NCBI GenBank assembly: GCA_016183175.1
Contig: JACPFC010000063.1
Location: 1-41,102, forward strand
Source of the DNA: Deltaproteobacteria bacterium
Lineage (GTDB): Bacteria; UBA10199; SBBF01
Reading direction: 5' to 3'
DNA length: 41,102 nt
Part shown: positions 7,616 through 29,065 of the stretch, piece by piece
How positions within the stretch are numbered: the stretch's first letter is position 1
Layout of the letters: each line of letters opens with the position of its first letter
The notes under the pieces: model-generated
What the model saw: only the letters and a program-made list of their open reading frames with translations
Told to the model about the DNA's origin: nothing
The model's database searches: none
Made by a program: the position numbers and the translations under genes

Positions 7616-10600
7616 TCACACGTCGATATGCCGCCGTTCAAACCTTGCCAAAAGGCTGTAGGCGCAGGGGACGACAAACAGCGTCAGCAGAGTCGAGACA
7701 AAAATCCCGCCGATCACCACCACCGCCATTGGGACCCGCGTCTCCGAGCCGGGGCCCAAGGCCAGCGCGGGAGGGACGGAGGCGGCCAGCGTGGCGAGGC
7801 TTGTCATCAAAATAGGCCGCAGTCTCTGGGGCGAGGCGGTCAAGATCGCCTCTTTCAGCTTCATCCCCTCGGCCCGGCGCTTGTTGGTAAAATCGACCAG
7901 CATGATGGAATTTTTCTTTGCGATGCCCATCAGCAAAATCAACCCGATGAAGCTGAAGATGCTCAACGATTTTCCGGTGAAAAAGAGGGCGACCCACGCC
8001 CCGGAGATGGAAAAAGGGAGCGCGAGCAGGACGGTGATGGGGTGAAGAAAACTGTTGTACTGCGTCCCCAACACCATGTAGGCGACAATCACGCCGAGGT
8101 AAAGGGCAAAAAAGAGGCTGGAGAACGATTCCTTGAAGGTCTCGGCCGAACCGGAGAGGACGATCCGGTATCCTTCAGGGAGCGTCTCTTTGGCCAGCTT
8201 TTCCGCCTCGGCCAGCGCCCGGCTCTGCGATGAATCGGGCGCCACGTTGGCAAAGATGCCGATCGCCCGTTCGCGATCCTTCCGGGTGATGCTCTTCAAC
8301 GTCTCATGCTCCTTGATCTGCACCACATCCGAAAGGCGGATCAGCTCGCCGTTTTCGTTTCGCACCATCAGACGCGAAATGTCTTCCGCGGTCTGCCGCG
8401 CGGACTCGTCAAGCCGGACGCGGATGTCGCTCCGGTGGCCGCCTTCGGTGAATTTCCCCAGGCGGACGCCGCCGACCAGGGCATTCACGGTTTGCCCGAT
8501 CACCTCCATGCTCACCTTCCGGTCGGCCGCCAGCGAGCGGAGGGGCGTGATCTGAATCTCCGGCTGGCCGTAGAGGTAATCGGTGTCGGCGTCGACAAAA
8601 GCGGGGTTCTTTTCCATTTTGTGAAGGAGTTCCTGCGAGACCCCGGTTAGCTTTTCCCAGTCGGGGCCGCGAACGGTGAACTCGATGGGGAATCCCCGTT
8701 GAGCCGTAAAGCCGCGCGTCGAAAGGTCCTGGAGCACCGGCTTGAGATCCGGTATTTTTGAAATCTCCCCGCGAAGAATCCCCATCAGCTCGGACTGCGA
8801 GAGGCGATGGTGGAGTTTCGGATCGACCGGCCTCTCTTTTTTGGGGAGCATGCTGACAAAGGACATGGCGGTGTTCACCTCGCCGCCGCCGAATCCGCCG
8901 ATGGCGACGTAATAGCGCCGGATCTCCGGGCGTTTGGCCAAAAGGACCTCGACCTGTTTTAATTTTTCGTCGGTAAAATTGATGGAGGAGCCGAGCGGCG
9001 TCTGCAGTCTGATTAAAAAGGCGCTCTGGTCCTGGGCCGGGACAAACTCCTTTTTCAAAAATGGGAGAAGGGCAAACGAAAGGGCAAAGAGGGCCGTGGC
9101 GCCAAGGATCACCTTCCAGCGGTGATCGAGGCATTTTTCAAGCCAACGTTTGTAGGCGACACTCATTTTTCCGAAGGCCCGGTTGACCCATTCGACTCGC
9201 TTCGCTCGCTCAGGGTGAACGGCCAGAAAAAGGGAGGCGCGCATCGGGGTGAGTGTCAGCGCCTCGATGAGCGAAAGCCCCACCGCCACCGACATGGTGA
9301 TGCCGAACTGGAAAAAGAATTTTCCGATGATCCCTTTCATGAAAATCACCGGGATGAAAATGGCGATCACCGCCAGTGTGGTGGCCACGGCGGCCGAGGT
9401 GATCTCGCGGGCGCCGTCGATGGCCGCCTGACGGGGGCTTTTTCCCATCTCCTGATGCCGGACGATGTTTTCCAAAACCATGATGGCGTCATCCACCACA
9501 ATGCCGATGGCGAGAATCAATCCGAGGAGGGTGAAAGTGTTCAGCGTAAATCCGAAAAAATAGAGGAAGAGAAACGAGCCGATGATCGATGTGGGAATGG
9601 CGAGCCAGACGTTGAAGGTGGCCCCCCACGAGGCGAGAAAGAGAAGGCAGACAACGCCGGTCAACAGCGCCGAGAGAACGAGGCTGAACTTCATCTCGTT
9701 GGTGGTGTCCCTGATAAACCGGGTGGTGTCGAAATTTACGGCGAGCGAATAACCGGGGGGGAGATTTTTTTTCAGCTCCTCCAGCCTTTCCTTTACCCCT
9801 TCGGCCACGCGGACGGCGTTGGCCCCGCGCTGTTTTTTGATGCCGAGCCCGATGGCCGGAATGCCGTTGGAACGGCTGATCCGGCGGATTTCGTCCAGCC
9901 CCAAAACCACGACAGCCACATCCTTGATATAAATGGGCCGGTAGATCGGGGTGCCCCCCCGTTTGTCGATCCGGATGTTACCGAACGCCTCCGGCGTCAT
10001 CGTTTCTCCCATCGAGCGGACGTTGATTTCGCGGGTCGGCGTCTCGATCCGCCCGGCCGGAACCTCGATGTGCTCGGCTTCGATGGCGTCCAATACATCC
10101 TTCACCGTCAACTCGTGGGACGCAAGTTTATCGGGATCGATCCAGACCCTTAAGTTCGGCTCCACGTAGCCGCCGAACATCACTTCGCCGACGCCGCTGA
10201 CGGTTTGAATCCGATCTTTCAAATGATCGCGGGCATATTCCATCAGTTCGCGAAGGCCCTTGTCCGAGGAGAGGGCAACCCACATGATCGGCTGGTCCTC
10301 CGGGTTGATCTTGACTACGGTTGGCGGGTCGATGTCTTGCGGGAGGCGCCTTTGAACCTGGGCGATTTTTGTCTGGACCTCCTGCAGAGCGGCGTCGATG
10401 TCGCGCCCCAGTTCAAACTCGATGCTGACGGTTGCGCTTTCCTGGCTGGAAGTGGATGAGACTGAACGGATCCCCTGAACGCTCATCACGGCGTCCTCGA
10501 TGATGTCCACCACGTCGGTCTCCATGATCTCCGGGGCGGCCCCCTCGTAAGTGATGTGGACGGTCACCACCGGAAAATCGACGTCGGGCATTTCGCTGAT

Positions 10601-10702
10601 CCCCATGCCGGCAAAGCCGATCCACCCGAAAAGAATCAGCCCCGCCATGAGCATCCAGGCGAAGACGGAGTTTTTTATCGAAATGTCGGAAAGTGTTGTC
10701 AT
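7616..10702 (-). CDS. RND (HAE1-type) multidrug efflux permease
   Basis: A 1028-residue inner-membrane proton/drug antiporter of the AcrB/MdtB type. It has the duplicated layout of the family: a first membrane helix (residues 10-32), a large periplasmic porter loop, helices 2-6, helix 7, a second periplasmic loop, and helices 8-12. The proton-relay residues are present: an Asp-Asp pair in helix 4 (GIVVDDAIMVLENI) and Lys in helix 10 (IAKKNSIMLVDF). It lies downstream of tolC on the same strand, but no membrane-fusion (HlyD/AcrA) gene lies between or beside them, although the tripartite pump needs one. An in-frame insertion encoding HPERAKRVEW near residues 495-505, in the cytoplasmic linker after helix 6, derives from a short repeat. 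Its ATG follows AAGAAGAA beside a palindromic element. Confidence 0.94.
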   Translation of the reverse strand: MTTLSDISIKNSVFAWMLMAGLILFGWIGFAGMGISEMPDVDFPVVTVHITYEGAAPEIMETDVVDIIEDAVMSVQGIRSVSSTSSQESATVSIEFELGRDIDAALQEVQTKIAQVQRRLPQDIDPPTVVKINPEDQPIMWVALSSDKGLRELMEYARDHLKDRIQTVSGVGEVMFGGYVEPNLRVWIDPDKLASHELTVKDVLDAIEAEHIEVPAGRIETPTREINVRSMGETMTPEAFGNIRIDKRGGTPIYRPIYIKDVAVVVLGLDEIRRISRSNGIPAIGLGIKKQRGANAVRVAEGVKERLEELKKNLPPGYSLAVNFDTTRFIRDTTNEMKFSLVLSALLTGVVCLLFLASWGATFNVWLAIPTSIIGSFLFLYFFGFTLNTFTLLGLILAIGIVVDDAIMVLENIVRHQEMGKSPRQAAIDGAREITSAAVATTLAVIAIFIPVIFMKGIIGKFFFQFGITMSVAVGLSLIEALTLTPMRASLFLAVHPERAKRVEWVNRAFGKMSVAYKRWLEKCLDHRWKVILGATALFALSFALLPFLKKEFVPAQDQSAFLIRLQTPLGSSINFTDEKLKQVEVLLAKRPEIRRYYVAIGGFGGGEVNTAMSFVSMLPKKERPVDPKLHHRLSQSELMGILRGEISKIPDLKPVLQDLSTRGFTAQRGFPIEFTVRGPDWEKLTGVSQELLHKMEKNPAFVDADTDYLYGQPEIQITPLRSLAADRKVSMEVIGQTVNALVGGVRLGKFTEGGHRSDIRVRLDESARQTAEDISRLMVRNENGELIRLSDVVQIKEHETLKSITRKDRERAIGIFANVAPDSSQSRALAEAEKLAKETLPEGYRIVLSGSAETFKESFSSLFFALYLGVIVAYMVLGTQYNSFLHPITVLLALPFSISGAWVALFFTGKSLSIFSFIGLILLMGIAKKNSIMLVDFTNKRRAEGMKLKEAILTASPQRLRPILMTSLATLAASVPPALALGPGSETRVPMAVVVIGGIFVSTLLTLFVVPCAYSLLARFERRHIDV
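9189..9220. repeat. Short interspersed repeat inside the RND gene
   Basis: A GC-rich segment built from CTCGCTTCGCTCGCTCAGG-type sequence is translated in frame (minus strand) as VHPERAKRVEW. From memory, sequences of the TTCGAC...CTCAGGGTGA type recur as interspersed repeats in many environmental bacterial genomes. It falls in a cytoplasmic loop where insertion is likely to be tolerated. No second copy was seen in this window. Confidence 0.55.
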
Positions 10703-10711
10703 TTCTTCTTG

Positions 10712-10836
10712 TAATGAGAAGGGAGTTCTTTTGGTTCCGCAATTTTTACAAGCCGTACTTGCCGGCTTGGACCATCTGCGGCCCGCGCGCGGCGGGGAGC
10801 AAAAATTGCTCCACTAAAAGAACTCCCTTCTCATTA
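10712..10836. repeat. Palindromic element A between tolC and the RND gene
   Basis: Perfect 21-bp inverted arms (10712-10732 and 10816-10836) enclose 83 bp. A second perfect 9-bp stem is nested inside (GCAATTTTT 10739-10747 with AAAAATTGC 10801-10809), then a 7-bp hairpin CAAGCCG/CGGCTTG (10749-10755, 10763-10769) and a CCGCGCGCGG palindrome (10783-10792). The outer right arm contains the tolC stop codon; the left arm ends ten bases from the RND start. It fits a miniature inverted-repeat element or an mRNA-stabilising/processing hairpin. A 22-codon GTG-started frame with an AAGGGAG site 8 bases upstream lies inside (10746-10814, minus). Confidence 0.85.
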
Positions 10837-12105
10837 TGGCGCCACTCCTGCCGTAATTTGAAGGGTCGTCCAGTCGATCCGCGACTGGATTTCGGCGGAG
10901 TCGTGCTCTCTTAGGGCAGTCAGCCAGATCTTTTGCGACTGAATCACGTCCAGATTGTTCACCAGCCCAAGGCGGAAATCATCCAGTTGGGCCAGATAAC
11001 TTTCCCTTGCCTTCTTTGCCGCCAGTGAAAATTGGACAAACCGGTTTTTGGACGATTGATAGGCGGCGTAGGCCTTTTTCACGTCGCTTACAGCCTGACG
11101 CCCGGCGCGCCCCGCCTCCAGTTCCGCCTCTTTGGCCTCTGCCTTCGCCTCGCGAAGTGCGCCATAGGTTTCCCAGTTGAAGATCGGGAGGTTTAAAGTG
11201 AAGAGGGCGTCCCATTTGATCTCTTTCTGAAAGCCGACGCGGTAGGGATAATAATTCGCTTCGGCGTCGATCTGCGGGTAGAGGTCGCTTTTTTTAAGCC
11301 CCACATTTCCGCGGGCGATATCCGCGTTTTTTTGGATAGCAAGGATGTCGTCCCGTTTGGAGACGGCAGACACATAGTCGTCCAGCGACTTCAGATTTCC
11401 GGTGGGATAATTTTTGATCTCTATGGGCGGCTGTGGATCGAGGCCGGTCAGAAAAGACATCATCTCATAGGCGATCCGTTTTTTCCCCTTTTTTATCTCC
11501 AGTTCCCCTTCCAGAAGGGAGAGGTCGGTTTCCTGCGCCAGAAGTTCGCTTGTCCGCGACTTGCCGAGATCGACCCGCTTGCGCACCTCGGAAAGGCGCG
11601 ACCGTTCAGCCTGAAGAATCCGGTTCGTGGTTGCAATATCCCGCTCGATCTTTGCGAGGACGTAAAAGGCGGCTGAAACATCCTGAAAGAGGAGGCGTTC
11701 GGCGTCCTTTCGCAAAAAATTCTGCCGGGCCCGGTCGGCGCTTGCCATTTTCAGGGCGGAAACCGCGCGCACCCCCTGAAAGATCGGTTGATTGAGCGTA
11801 ATCGCCACCTCCGGACGGCTAAAGCGGGTAAAGGTGGAGCCGATGGTGGAGTCGGCCGAAGAATTGCCGCTGGTGTCCTGCAAAAACTCGCTGGCGTTGA
11901 TGGAGAGTTGCGGCAGGATACTCCCCAGCGCCTGCGCGTAGCGCCCGCGCGCGGCGGTGATTTCGGCATCGGAGATGGGAATCGTCTCGCTTTTTTTGAG
12001 CGCTGACTGAAAGCAGTCGAGAAGGGTCATTTTCGGTCCGGCCGCCGGGACTTTGGTGCCGATAAGGATCATGCCCATAGTGATGATGGAGAAAACTTTT
12101 TTCAC
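10834..12105 (-). CDS. TolC-family outer-membrane efflux protein
   Basis: A 423-residue outer-membrane channel component, exporting substrates of the neighbouring RND pump. The GTG at 12105 gives a clean signal peptide (MKKVFSIITMGMILIGTKVPAAG) and has AAGGAA nine bases upstream; an earlier TTG at 12135 would add ten residues before it and spoil the n-region. Two outer-membrane-efflux repeats follow: the first around residues 25-210 (with the ITLNQPIFQG beta-strand signature), the second about 215-420 (FTLNLPIFNWE). Long amphipathic helices match the alpha-barrel. It precedes the RND gene, with palindromic element A covering the 131-base gap, so the two are probably one transcript. It diverges from hppA; the shared 68-base control region contains TTGAC (12119-12123) and GTCAA (12131-12135) arms. 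Confidence 0.92.
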   Translation of the reverse strand: MKKVFSIITMGMILIGTKVPAAGPKMTLLDCFQSALKKSETIPISDAEITAARGRYAQALGSILPQLSINASEFLQDTSGNSSADSTIGSTFTRFSRPEVAITLNQPIFQGVRAVSALKMASADRARQNFLRKDAERLLFQDVSAAFYVLAKIERDIATTNRILQAERSRLSEVRKRVDLGKSRTSELLAQETDLSLLEGELEIKKGKKRIAYEMMSFLTGLDPQPPIEIKNYPTGNLKSLDDYVSAVSKRDDILAIQKNADIARGNVGLKKSDLYPQIDAEANYYPYRVGFQKEIKWDALFTLNLPIFNWETYGALREAKAEAKEAELEAGRAGRQAVSDVKKAYAAYQSSKNRFVQFSLAAKKARESYLAQLDDFRLGLVNNLDVIQSQKIWLTALREHDSAEIQSRIDWTTLQITAGVAP

Positions 12106-12173
12106 TTTGAATGTTTCCTTGACTTCAAGCGTCAATTTTAATACCAGAAATCACTTTTTTAGTGGAGGAACTC

Positions 12174-16079: not shown

Positions 16080-16717
16080 CGCGCCGGACTGACATACGGA
16101 AAGACTCCCAAAAGAGGCGCTCCGTATCGTTTCAATACATCGGGATTTGTTTTATCCGCAATCGTCCTTCCCTTCGAGGTCTGATTCAAAATCGCTCCCA
16201 AAACCCGGACCCGGTTTCTTTTCAAATGCTCAAGCGTAAGAAGGGTGTGATTGATCGTTCCCAGCCCAAGCCGCGCCACGACCAGAACGGGGATTTTCAG
16301 ATAACGGATCAGATCAAGGTTTGTCTTCTTCCCCGCCACCGGCACCAAAAGCCCACCGGCCCCCTCGATGAAAATCACATCGTATTTTTTCTGGAGGCCC
16401 CGAAGATTTTTCCTGATTCGGACAAATGAAACCCTGACTCCTTGACGGGCCGCCGCCACCCCCGGGGCCAGAGGTTCTTTGAAATAATAGGGATTGATGA
16501 CATCCAGCGGCTCGGGCATACGGGCCGTTTTTTTGAGGAACTCCGAATCGGCCCGCCTGATGTGGCGGCCCCTTGCCGCACATCCTGACTCCAACGGCTT
16601 GAACGCCCCGGCGCGGATTCCCTTACTGTTCAGGAAAGCACACAGCGCCCCGGTGACATAAGTTTTGCCCACGCCGGTATCGGCGCCGCAAACAAAGATT
16701 GTTTTTTGAGCAAACAA
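16073..16717 (-). CDS. bioD: Dethiobiotin synthetase
   Basis: Makes dethiobiotin from 7,8-diaminopelargonic acid, CO2 and ATP, the next-to-last step of biotin synthesis. The P-loop is at residues 11-19 (GADTGVGKT), close to the N-terminus as in the family, followed by the conserved FKPLESG (substrate Lys), GAGGLLVP and the base-recognition segment LNQTS. From TTG 16717 the protein has 214 residues, near the usual length. The start is uncertain: no ribosome-binding site precedes it and a 22-bp tandem duplication covers the region, so upstream in-frame TTG codons are possible. The gene lies 28 bases after the ribbon-helix-helix gene and may be co-transcribed. No other bio gene is in the window. 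Confidence 0.9.
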   Translation of the reverse strand: MFAQKTIFVCGADTGVGKTYVTGALCAFLNSKGIRAGAFKPLESGCAARGRHIRRADSEFLKKTARMPEPLDVINPYYFKEPLAPGVAAARQGVRVSFVRIRKNLRGLQKKYDVIFIEGAGGLLVPVAGKKTNLDLIRYLKIPVLVVARLGLGTINHTLLTLEHLKRNRVRVLGAILNQTSKGRTIADKTNPDVLKRYGAPLLGVFPYVSPARQ

Positions 16718-16747
16718 AGAGAGTCTTTTGAGCAAACAAAGAGAGTC
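16704..16747. repeat. Exact 22-bp tandem duplication at the bioD start
   Basis: Two identical 22-bp units (16704-16725 and 16726-16747, core TTTTGAGCAAACAAAGAG) lie head to tail across the end of the ribbon-helix-helix gene and the start of bioD. The length is not a multiple of three, so the duplication changes which upstream start codons are in frame with bioD. Perfect identity suggests a recent event. Confidence 0.9.
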
Positions 16748-21606: not shown

Positions 21607-22526
21607 GCAATCACCACCCTTGGCAATCCCGCATAATCCTTAACCACTTCGATGTCCGACAACCCTGCCCTTTCAAAAATCTCTTTCACCGCCCGCGGTT
21701 GATCCTCGCCAATCTCCACCGCAAGCCAACCGCCCGGTTTTAGGAGACGCGGCGCAGTTTCCCCGATCTTTTGGTAAAAATCAAGGCCGTCGGCCCCGCC
21801 GTCCAGGGCGATTCGCGGTTCGTAATCGCGGACCCCGGCCGGCAGGGTCTCGATCGTCTTGGTGGGAATGTAGGGGGGGTTGGAGACAAGAAGATTGAAG
21901 ATGGAAGGTCGAAGATCGTGGATCGTAAAAAAATCATTTTTGATAAATTCAATCCGGGACTGAACGCCGTTGGCGACAGCATTTTCTTTCGCGTACTTCA
22001 AGGCATCCTCCGACACATCAATAGCCGTAACTTTTGCATTGGGAAATACTTTGGCCAGGGTAATTGCAAGATTCCCGCTCCCGGTACCAACATCTAATAT
22101 CTCGATCTTCGACCTTCCATCTTCGATCTTCGACCTTCGACCCTCAACCGTCTCAACCAGAATTTCCGTCTCCGGCCTCGGCACCATCACCCCGGGGCCA
22201 ACCGCAAACGACAGCGACCAGAATTCCTTGAATCCGCGGATGTAGGAAACAGGCTCCCCCTTCACCCGTCGCTGGACCAGCGCCTTGAAGTCGGACAATT
22301 CTTTTTCGGACATCGGACGTTCGAACTGGAGATAGAGTTGGATCCTTTCAATATTGAGCAGATGGGCCAAAAGCACCTCGGCATCCAGCCGCGGCGTGGG
22401 GATTTGGCGCCGGGTGAAATAGTCGGTGGTCCAGTTTAGCAGAGAGATGAGGGTCCAAGATGACACAAGATCAACGTGGATCGTGGATTGTGAATCGTGG
22501 ATCGAAAAAAACCATCCACCATCCAC
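21594..22526 (-). CDS. prmC: Peptide chain release factor N5-glutamine methyltransferase
   Basis: Methylates the GGQ glutamine of release factors RF1 and RF2. Motifs: PRPETEILVE, ILDVGTGSGNLAI (SAM motif I) and LLVSNPPYIP, where NPPY binds the target glutamine. The core begins TLISLLNWTTDYFTRR and matches the family; the first ~20 residues from ATG 22526 are encoded by a 7-bp repeat array and have no homology, so the GTG at 22466 is an equally good start. Two further 7-bp arrays lie inside the gene: one adds about 14 residues between LVETV and ILDVG, the other replaces residues just before NPPY. The gene begins seven bases after prfA, its substrate's gene, and overlaps murA. Confidence 0.94.
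   Translation of the reverse strand: MDGGWFFSIHDSQSTIHVDLVSSWTLISLLNWTTDYFTRRQIPTPRLDAEVLLAHLLNIERIQLYLQFERPMSEKELSDFKALVQRRVKGEPVSYIRGFKEFWSLSFAVGPGVMVPRPETEILVETVEGRRSKIEDGRSKIEILDVGTGSGNLAITLAKVFPNAKVTAIDVSEDALKYAKENAVANGVQSRIEFIKNDFFTIHDLRPSIFNLLVSNPPYIPTKTIETLPAGVRDYEPRIALDGGADGLDFYQKIGETAPRLLKPGGWLAVEIGEDQPRAVKEIFERAGLSDIEVVKDYAGLPRVVIAWTK
21890..21924. repeat. 7-bp-period tandem array inside prmC, copy 1
   Basis: Five units of a degenerate heptamer (GAAGATT, GAAGATG, GAAGGTC, GAAGATC, GTGGATC) follow one another without gaps. Read on the minus strand they encode HDLRPSIFNL just before the NPPY motif. Confidence 0.85.
22104..22145. repeat. 7-bp-period tandem array inside prmC, copy 2
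   Basis: Six heptamers (GATCTTC, GACCTTC, CATCTTC, GATCTTC, GACCTTC, GACCCTC), 42 bp, encode EGRRSKIEDGRSKI in frame. They sit between the substrate-binding helix domain and the methyltransferase core, where homologues have a short variable linker. Confidence 0.88.
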
Positions 22527-27764: not shown

Positions 27765-28931
27765 ATGGACATTCAACTTCTGCGGCAGGAATTGAACAAA
27801 CTGCTCCGCGAAAAGCTGGAGCCGGTGGTGGAATTGTCCGATCTGAATTCGGAATTTCCGCTGGAGGTCTACAAAGAAGTCGCGCGCGCCGGATTTGGCG
27901 GGGTCTACCTGCCGGAAGAATACGGCGGCGGGGGGAGCCTTGAGGGTCTGATGGCCGTGATGGAAGAGATGAGCAAATTCTCCCCCGGCTTTGCCCTCTC
28001 CGCCATGGCCAGCTTTCAGCTCTTCGGCTACAACATCGCCCGGCTGGGGACAAAGGACCAGAAGGAAAAGTATCTGCGGGGGCTGATGAATGAGGCCAAA
28101 GTCGGCTGTTGGGCGCTCACCGAGCCGGATGTGGGAAGCGACGCCATTCACATCAAAACAACGGCCAAAAAAGAGGGGAATAATTACGTCTTGAACGGCT
28201 CCAAAACCTTCATCACCAACGCCCCGATCGCCGACTACTTCATCATCATTGCCAACTCCGGTGGCGGCGCCACTGGCGGCGGCACGGGGTTCAATTCCGG
28301 CTCCGCCTTCGTTCTGGAAAAAGGGATGAAGGGGCTCTCGGTCGGCAAACCGTTTCTCAAACATGGCCACCGGTGCTCGCCGACCGGACAGATATTTCTC
28401 GACCAGGTAAAAGTCTCCAAAGATTGTTTCCTCGGCAGTGAGGGATCGGCCTTTGCCGACATGAAGCACTCGCTGGAACTGGAGCGGTTTCTGGTCGGTC
28501 CCATGGTCTGCGGGATGCTGGAGACGCTCATCGAAAAAAGCGTCGCCTATGCCTACGGCCGACAGCAGTTCGGCCAGCCGATCCTTTCGTTTCAGCTGAT
28601 TCAGGAAAAAATCGCCCGGATGCGAATGCACCTGGAAATGATCCGCTCTGCCGTCGAGCGCGGTGTGGCGCTGATGGAGGCGGGCAAATCCGCAACCAAC
28701 CTGGCCACGGCGCTCAAGCTCTACGCCGGCCGGGCGGCGGTGGAGATGGCCAGCGAATCGATGCAGATCCATGGCGGGAACGGCTATATGCACGAATACC
28801 GGGTGGAGATGTTCATGCGTGACGCCAAACTTCTGGAGATCGGCGGCGGGACCAACGAGATGATGATCCAGATTCTGGCAAAAAACACGGCAAAGGAAAT
28901 AGGCAAAAAATCCGGACTGGGAACTCTGTGA
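27765..28931 (+). CDS. Acyl-CoA dehydrogenase
   Basis: An FAD-dependent alpha,beta-dehydrogenase of acyl-CoA esters, 388 residues. Signatures: CWALTEPDVGSDA (115-127), the FAD/substrate strand NGSKTFITNAPIADYF, GRQQFGQPILSFQLIQ, and the end QIHGGNGY ... EIGGGTNEM. In many family members the catalytic base is the Glu of an EGT motif near the C-terminus; here that motif is GGT, and E240 in SLELERF aligns with the alternative base used by isovaleryl-CoA dehydrogenase, so a branched-chain or similar substrate is likely. Residues 166-181 are an unusual Gly-rich insertion. The start has AAGGCGG eight bases upstream. One arm of palindromic element B overlaps the stop codon. Confidence 0.94.
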   Translation: MDIQLLRQELNKLLREKLEPVVELSDLNSEFPLEVYKEVARAGFGGVYLPEEYGGGGSLEGLMAVMEEMSKFSPGFALSAMASFQLFGYNIARLGTKDQKEKYLRGLMNEAKVGCWALTEPDVGSDAIHIKTTAKKEGNNYVLNGSKTFITNAPIADYFIIIANSGGGATGGGTGFNSGSAFVLEKGMKGLSVGKPFLKHGHRCSPTGQIFLDQVKVSKDCFLGSEGSAFADMKHSLELERFLVGPMVCGMLETLIEKSVAYAYGRQQFGQPILSFQLIQEKIARMRMHLEMIRSAVERGVALMEAGKSATNLATALKLYAGRAAVEMASESMQIHGGNGYMHEYRVEMFMRDAKLLEIGGGTNEMMIQILAKNTAKEIGKKSGLGTL

Positions 28932-29065
28932 CAACCGGCAGTCAGCGGTAACGAAGGTGAAATGACCAGGCAGTCTGTCGTTGTCCACAAAACAATCCAA
29001 GCCGAACTTGCAAAAGGTTGTCGGTCGGAGTAGCTGACGCCGGTGGAACAGAGTTCCCAGTCCGG
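28912..29065. repeat. Palindromic element B between the acyl-CoA dehydrogenase and methyltransferase genes
   Basis: Perfect 18-bp arms (28912-28929 and 29048-29065) are continued inward by a 12-bp stem with one bulge (ACCGGC and GTCAGC at 28934-28946 with GCTGAC and GCCGGT at 29033-29044). An alternative 7-bp pairing GACAACC/GGTTGTC (28930-28936 with 29016-29022) would compete with it. The left arm contains the last codons of the upstream gene; the right arm ends eight bases before the next ATG. A 23-codon ATG frame with AAGGTG upstream lies inside (28962-29033). The core has GCAAGTTCGGCTTG on the minus strand, which matches GCAAGTACGGCTTG in element A. Confidence 0.85.

What the first reader, a model, noticed from the sequence alone, without database searches (positions are those of the whole stretch)
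10712..10836. Element A: a 125-bp nested palindrome fills the tolC-RND junction and contains the tolC stop codon
The arms are 21 bp and perfectly complementary, with a second 9-bp stem and a 7-bp hairpin nested inside. Random occurrence of a perfect 21-bp inverted repeat at this distance is very unlikely. The right arm covers the tolC stop, and the left ends ten bases from the RND start, so either a mobile element landed exactly between two genes or the structure is maintained because it sets the tolC:RND expression ratio. A 22-codon GTG frame with an AAGGGAG site 8 bases upstream (10746-10814, minus) lies inside.
Basis: partly seen in the sequence, partly recalled or inferred. Interest (0 to 1): 0.75.

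Follow-up and report, generated by a model that had tools for sequence, protein, structure and literature searches.

The report
Mobile palindrome with co-evolving hairpin arms
The 125-bp palindrome between the tolC and RND pump genes is one of about 30 copies per genome of a small, apparently mobile hairpin element found in two related uncultured groundwater bacteria; it separated two genes that once overlapped, and it is interesting mainly because each copy's two arms change together and copies at shared sites are often flipped.

Summary
The palindrome is real: 21-bp perfect arms, RNA-fold z about -9, roughly 2e-6 such repeats expected by chance per window. It is not a one-off. A covariance model finds 26 strong and 6 divergent copies in this genome, 27 plus 2 in a second genus of the same family (a groundwater 'Deltaproteobacteria' MAG), and none in the other 44 genomes held from this phylum. 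Copies share a core; their outer arms differ from copy to copy yet stay complementary (134 double changes against 21 in shuffles). At nine sites shared by the two genera the core is inverted at five. At seven of these sites, 14 arm positions changed on both sides in step; 20,000 shuffles gave at most 6. Relatives' tolC and RND genes overlap by ATGA with no element, so this copy is a lineage-specific insertion whose arm supplies the tolC stop. Another copy lies in frame inside MutY. Best reading: a non-autonomous palindromic mobile element, resembling Rickettsia palindromic elements and ERIC, whose arms are kept matched, and core flipped, by replication template switching. No mobilising enzyme or target-site duplication was found. 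A dedicated tolC:RND ratio control and the 22-codon frame are not supported.

The parts
10712..10836 (-). Whole palindromic element (model orientation is the minus strand)
   Evidence: Covariance model hit, 103.4 bits, E 4.5e-22 in the window
10816..10836 (-). Outer arm, 5' in model orientation; contains the tolC stop TAA (10834-10836)
   Evidence: Perfect 21-bp complement of the other arm
10712..10732 (-). Outer arm, 3' in model orientation
10801..10809 (-). Inner stem, 5' side (GCAATTTTT); nearly invariant in the family
10739..10747 (-). Inner stem, 3' side (AAAAATTGC)
10796..10812 (-). Local hairpin GGAGCAA/TTGCTCC that competes with the inner stem in this copy
10749..10769 (-). Apical hairpin CAAGCCG/CGGCTTG; includes the family's conserved CGGCTT motif
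10703..10711 (-). Nine bases (CAAGAAGAA) between element and RND start, with no counterpart in relatives; possibly the new ribosome-binding region (inference)
   Evidence: Comparison with element-free junctions
10834..12135 (-). tolC-like outer membrane efflux gene, now ending in the element
   Evidence: PF02321, E 4e-42
7616..10702 (-). RND transporter gene
   Evidence: PF00873, E 9e-283
16688..16747 (.). 2.7 tandem 22-bp units resembling a solo outer arm (GCAAACAAAGAGAGTC-TTTTGA) at the 5' end of a BioD-like gene; probably a relic of the same family
   Evidence: Tandem repeat finder, sequence, translation and PF13500

Best explanation
It is one copy of a lineage-specific, non-autonomous, interspersed palindromic element of about 124 bp (MITE-like; closest in behaviour to Rickettsia palindromic elements and ERIC). 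Shown: about 30 copies in each of two genera, a conserved core with copy-specific but complementary arms, orthologous sites without the element, and an in-frame copy inside MutY. For this copy: four relatives have tolC and RND overlapping by ATGA, so that was very probably the ancestral junction; the element plus nine bases now separates the genes, gives tolC a new stop and leaves the RND ATG intact. Inferred: it moved by a trans-acting enzyme not identified here. Inferred: its arms stay complementary, and its core flips, because the polymerase switches template between the arms during replication (arm homogenisation plus spacer inversion), not because the hairpin is selected for a function at this locus. 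Inferred: here it abolishes tolC-RND translational coupling and puts a stable hairpin in the mRNA.
For: Copies. Absent at the same junction in G002, G004, G006, G007. In-frame MutY insert absent from seven relatives. Covariation: 22 pairs changed on both sides, 134 double-changed cells against 20.7 (sd 3.8) shuffled, 0/500. Shared sites: core inverted at 5 of 9; 14 compensated against 7 one-sided arm changes, with 20,000 permutations giving at most 6 compensated. G-U only 1.4% of outer-arm cells. Core-deleted remnant in G002 opposite L033. Template switching is reported to homogenise inverted-repeat arms and invert the spacer (PMC8604942; PMC8794818).
Against: No target-site duplication and no autonomous partner found. 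Cores of orthologous copies are no more alike than those of random copies except at one site, so inversion in place is not separated from re-insertion or conversion between copies; at two inverted sites the genera carry different core subtypes. The template-switching step is inferred from pattern only. Both genomes are draft assemblies (96% and 84% complete).
Confidence: 0.62

Rival explanations
1. Structure-recognised mobile hairpin: the element moves as folded single-stranded DNA and its enzyme reads the shape plus the conserved unpaired motifs, so any arm sequence is allowed as long as it pairs. Arm complementarity is then kept by selection on mobility.
For: Core and junction motifs conserved while arms vary; divergent copies L074-L078 keep the layout with unrelated arms; few G-U pairs in the outer arm.
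Against: Y1 transposase is only a 70-aa fragment in G000 and absent in G002. Arms appear to go on co-evolving at fixed sites, which selection on transposition would not by itself require.
Confidence: 0.2
2. The hairpin is kept as a functional RNA (mRNA processing, stability or termination) and at this locus sets the tolC:RND ratio.
For: Very stable fold; covariation; many copies lie close to gene ends by crude ORF calls; ERIC can affect mRNA stability (PMC2229807).
Against: Element absent at this junction in relatives that keep the gene pair. Contexts are unrelated: co-directional, convergent and divergent genes, and inside MutY. Orientation is not conserved at shared sites. The near-absence of G-U intermediates in the outer arm is unlike usual RNA helix evolution (inference).
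Confidence: 0.12
3. The sites shared by the two genera are independent insertions into a strongly preferred target, so orientation differences and arm differences reflect different insertions rather than inversion and homogenisation.
For: Cores at shared sites are not more alike than random; at L076/L070 both arms and core differ; a GTAACNG motif is enriched near copies.
Against: Base-exact sharing at 9 of about 30 sites with no obvious common target; L025/L050 share core and orientation; inner flank-to-arm sequence is continuous between genera at several sites.
Confidence: 0.15
4. One-off local rearrangement that happened to make a palindrome.
For: The palindrome alone could arise that way.
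Against: 52 further strong homologous copies with the same core.
Confidence: 0.01

Closest known systems
Rickettsia palindromic elements (RPE; Ogata et al. 2000 and 2002, as described in PMC2229807 and PMC10969869)
   Same: About 105-150 bp palindromes, dispersed, non-coding by themselves, found both between genes and fused in frame into conserved proteins.
   Different: Sequence homology not shown; different, unrelated host lineage; here arms vary between copies with compensation. Only one clear internal in-frame protein insertion (MutY) plus N-terminal cases, against many in Rickettsia.
ERIC / IRU (127 bp, enterobacteria; PMC2229807)
   Same: Length, imperfect palindrome, dispersed mostly between genes.
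   Different: Unrelated sequence; ERIC has a short TIR and TA duplication, neither seen here.
MITEs in general (PMC10969869)
   Same: Short, non-autonomous, inverted-repeat ends, tens of copies.
   Different: No parent insertion sequence, no target-site duplication found; arms are not a fixed TIR sequence.
REP / REPIN elements with RAYT transposase (PMC3116915, PMC2817692)
   Same: Hairpin-forming, non-autonomous, dispersed.
   Different: REPs are 20-40 bp (PMC3733652 abstract); no full-length Y1 transposase in either host.
Template-switch mutation at inverted repeats (PMC8604942, PMC8794818)
   Same: Arms homogenised, spacer or loop inverted.
   Different: Published events found here concern yeast coding repeats, microRNA and rRNA hairpins with short spacers; here the spacer is about 80 bp and the hairpin is a multicopy bacterial repeat.

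Membership tests
MITE | Short non-coding multicopy element with inverted-repeat ends | tested here: met
   53 strong copies of 123-126 bp in two genomes
MITE | Orthologous sites without the element | tested here: met
   tolC-RND junction, MutY, L032, L034 and L036 sites
MITE | Target-site duplication | tested here: inconclusive
   None recognisable; flanks diverged 15-28% between the genera compared
MITE | Parent transposase with the same ends | tested here: inconclusive
   All model hits are complete elements; no targeted search beyond Y1
Rickettsia palindromic elements | Palindromic element fused in frame into conserved proteins | tested here: met
   MutY, 41 residues, absent from seven relatives; N-terminal cases L024/L048 and L030/L046
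Rickettsia palindromic elements | Sequence homology to an RPE family | not tested
   No RPE sequence was fetched; an exact core pattern hit no other genome. Not filed as a member
ERIC | Homology to the ERIC consensus | not tested
   No ERIC sequence was compared; only length and form are alike. Not filed as a member
REP / RAYT | Full-length Y1 (RAYT) transposase in the host | tested here: not met
   Only a 70-aa fragment in G000, none in G002 (draft genomes)
Rfam structured RNA | Match to a curated family at gathering score | tested here: not met
   No match in the window
Template-switch homogenised inverted repeat | Compensated arm changes in step and spacer inversion at the same site | tested here: met
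   14 compensated against 7 one-sided changes; core inverted at 5 of 9 shared sites. The pattern is met; the mechanism itself is not observed

The most novel reading that the evidence does not exclude
A family of mobile DNA hairpins recognised by shape rather than by sequence: only the core and the unpaired junction motifs are fixed, the arms may take any sequence that pairs, and the core inverts so often at a fixed site that its orientation is random between sister genera.
Probability: 0.2. Interest if true: 0.7.

Novelty: new variant of a known kind. Interest (0 to 1): 0.5.

Why it matters
It adds a palindromic-element family in an uncultured lineage that, like Rickettsia palindromic elements, can enter a conserved protein in frame. 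More usefully, dozens of copies and shared sites in two genera give a natural record of how long hairpin arms are kept matched. The scarcity of one-sided changes, together with inverted cores, lets one ask directly whether bacterial hairpins are maintained by mutation (template switching) rather than by selection for structure. That is a caution for reading covariation alone as proof of a functional RNA.

Tried and rejected
Rfam scan of the window: nothing. Exact-pattern scans: only one groundwater MAG in genome contigs and nothing in viral contigs, so no phage link was seen. The G019 hit to the 21-nt arm is a lone arm without a second arm nearby, taken as chance. The 22-codon GTG frame is not conserved. 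An attC-like recombination site was considered because of the GTAACNG/CNGTTAC motif beside some copies (about 20-fold over background); set aside because copies are not in arrays and most copies lack the motif. REP/RAYT: no full-length Y1 transposase. A longer flanking repeat (GTAACRGCTCRGGTGGTTC) is rare. Comparing cores of orthologous with non-orthologous copies did not settle descent against re-insertion. Paper searches for fungal double-hairpin elements gave nothing usable.

Full report
Observation. Arms 10712-10732 and 10816-10836 are 21 nt and perfectly complementary; about 2e-6 such repeats are expected per window by chance. Both strands fold strongly as RNA (z -8.9 and -9.3; DNA parameters z -7.4). 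The nested 9-bp stem and 7-bp hairpin exist, but in this copy they are mutually exclusive. The flanking genes are an OEP/TolC gene and an RND gene.

It is a repeat family. A nucleotide search of the own genome found diverged copies, nearly all of them palindromes with the same core. An alignment of 11 copies gave a covariance model. The model finds 26 strong and 6 divergent copies in the own genome (2.35 Mb, 137 contigs), and 27 strong and 2 divergent copies in G002, another genus of the same family. It finds none in G001, the third genus of the family, nor in the rest of the 46 genomes held for this class and phylum. No viral contig carries it.

Anatomy. Outer stem of about 22 bp; an asymmetric junction (GACGGAG on one side, GCGAAGAC on the other); inner stem GCAATTTTyG / CRAAAATTGC; and an apical part that begins TTCCCGCC and ends CGGCTT. 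The core is conserved while the outer arms differ between copies. On 53 distinct copies 95.1% of cells are paired; 22 pairs have changes on both sides; 134 cells are double-changed against 20.7 (sd 3.8) in shuffles; and sliding the partner by 1-3 columns drops pairing to 40-50%. In outer columns 2-11 double-changed cells outnumber one-sided ones 83 to 5. G-U pairs are 1.4% of cells in outer columns 1-11 and 10.4% in the inner part of the outer stem. The divergent copies L074-L078 keep the layout with unrelated outer arms, and two of them also change the inner stem. Cells count sequences, not events, so these numbers overstate independent changes.

Evolution at shared sites. Blasting flanks shows nine sites occupied in both genera. 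The core lies in the same orientation relative to the flanks at four and is inverted at five. At seven of these sites (one left out for an indel, one because the arms do not align), among the outermost 14 arm positions, 14 changed on both sides and stayed complementary, one changed on both sides without pairing, and 7 changed on one side. Independence predicts about 3.5 both-sided and 30 one-sided; no permutation of 20,000 exceeded 6 compensated changes. If the copies descend from one insertion per site, the arms go on co-evolving after insertion. Cores of orthologous copies are no more alike than those of random copies, except L025/L050, so re-insertion or conversion between copies cannot be excluded for the inverted cases; at L024/L048 and L030/L046 the genera carry different core subtypes.

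Insertion history. In G002, G004, G006 and G007 the tolC-like stop and the RND start overlap as ATGA and there is no element; in G001 the RND gene is not preceded by tolC. Here 125 bp plus nine bases (CAAGAAGAA) separate the genes, and the first codon of the element is the tolC stop. This is a lineage-specific insertion, very probably into a gene overlap. G002 also has sites without an element opposite copies L032, L034 and L036, and a core-deleted remnant opposite L033. No target-site duplication could be recognised.

Copies in coding sequence. Copy L031 lies in frame inside MutY: 41 residues interrupt the C-terminal NUDIX_4 domain at a loop of variable length, the HhH-GPD domain is intact, and seven relatives lack the insert. 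L024/L048 sit between the start codon and the signal peptide of a predicted secreted protein, open in frame in both genera despite opposite core orientation, and the G001 orthologue lacks the insert. L030/L046 lie in an open frame upstream of the GspD signal peptide. In the N-terminal cases translation might instead start inside the element; this was not tested.

How it most likely works. Dispersion, element-free sites and insertion into genes say that it is, or was, mobile. No transposase partner was found; Y1 transposase is only a fragment in G000 and absent in G002. Compensated arm changes with few intermediates plus core inversions are the two outcomes reported for polymerase template switching between inverted-repeat arms (PMC8604942, PMC8794818). 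Selection on hairpin shape for mobility is the main rival. Selection for a regulatory RNA is unlikely given the contexts. At tolC-RND the expected side effects (loss of translational coupling, a stable hairpin between the genes) are inference.

Comparison. It works like Rickettsia palindromic elements (palindromes in frame in proteins) and resembles ERIC in length and form. Homology to either was not tested, and the constant terminal repeats, target-site duplications and parent insertion sequence typical of MITEs were not demonstrated. I file it as a new variant of the palindromic mini-element kind.

Noticed in passing
window 16688-16747: Tandem array of about 2.7 units of 22 bp resembling a solo outer arm of the element, at the 5' end of a BioD-like gene (AAA_26, PF13500); it appears to lengthen the N-terminus of the open frame.
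   Followed up: partly
window 28912-29065: A second palindrome (18-bp perfect arms, 118-nt spacer) that the model does not match; a 72% identical 142-bp relative lies at G000:C106 (L032:410-550), so it may be another palindromic repeat family.
   Followed up: partly
window 21889-22153: 22-bp perfect inverted repeat of low-complexity GAAGATCGAAGATGGAAGG-type sequence; one arm is a 7-bp tandem array. No relatives in the loci held.
   Followed up: partly
L029:1385-1467 (G000:C103): A separate repeat of about 55-80 bp (ATCGGGGGCTTTGCCGCTGGCGCCCCCGTACCCCCC...) occurs many times in all three genera of the family, also in G001, which lacks the palindromic element.
   Followed up: no
flanks of L019, L022, L033, L037, L039, L040, L047, L054, L068 and others: GTAACNG pointing at the element within 25 nt in 17 of 122 flanks, about 20 times background; at some sites this is part of a coding sequence or stop codon. 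Meaning unknown.
   Followed up: partly
L126 (G002) opposite L033 (G000:C43:9924): The orthologous G002 site keeps GCAAACAAAGAGAGTCC joined to CTTTGTTTAC: arms with the core deleted, consistent with slippage at a hairpin.
   Followed up: yes
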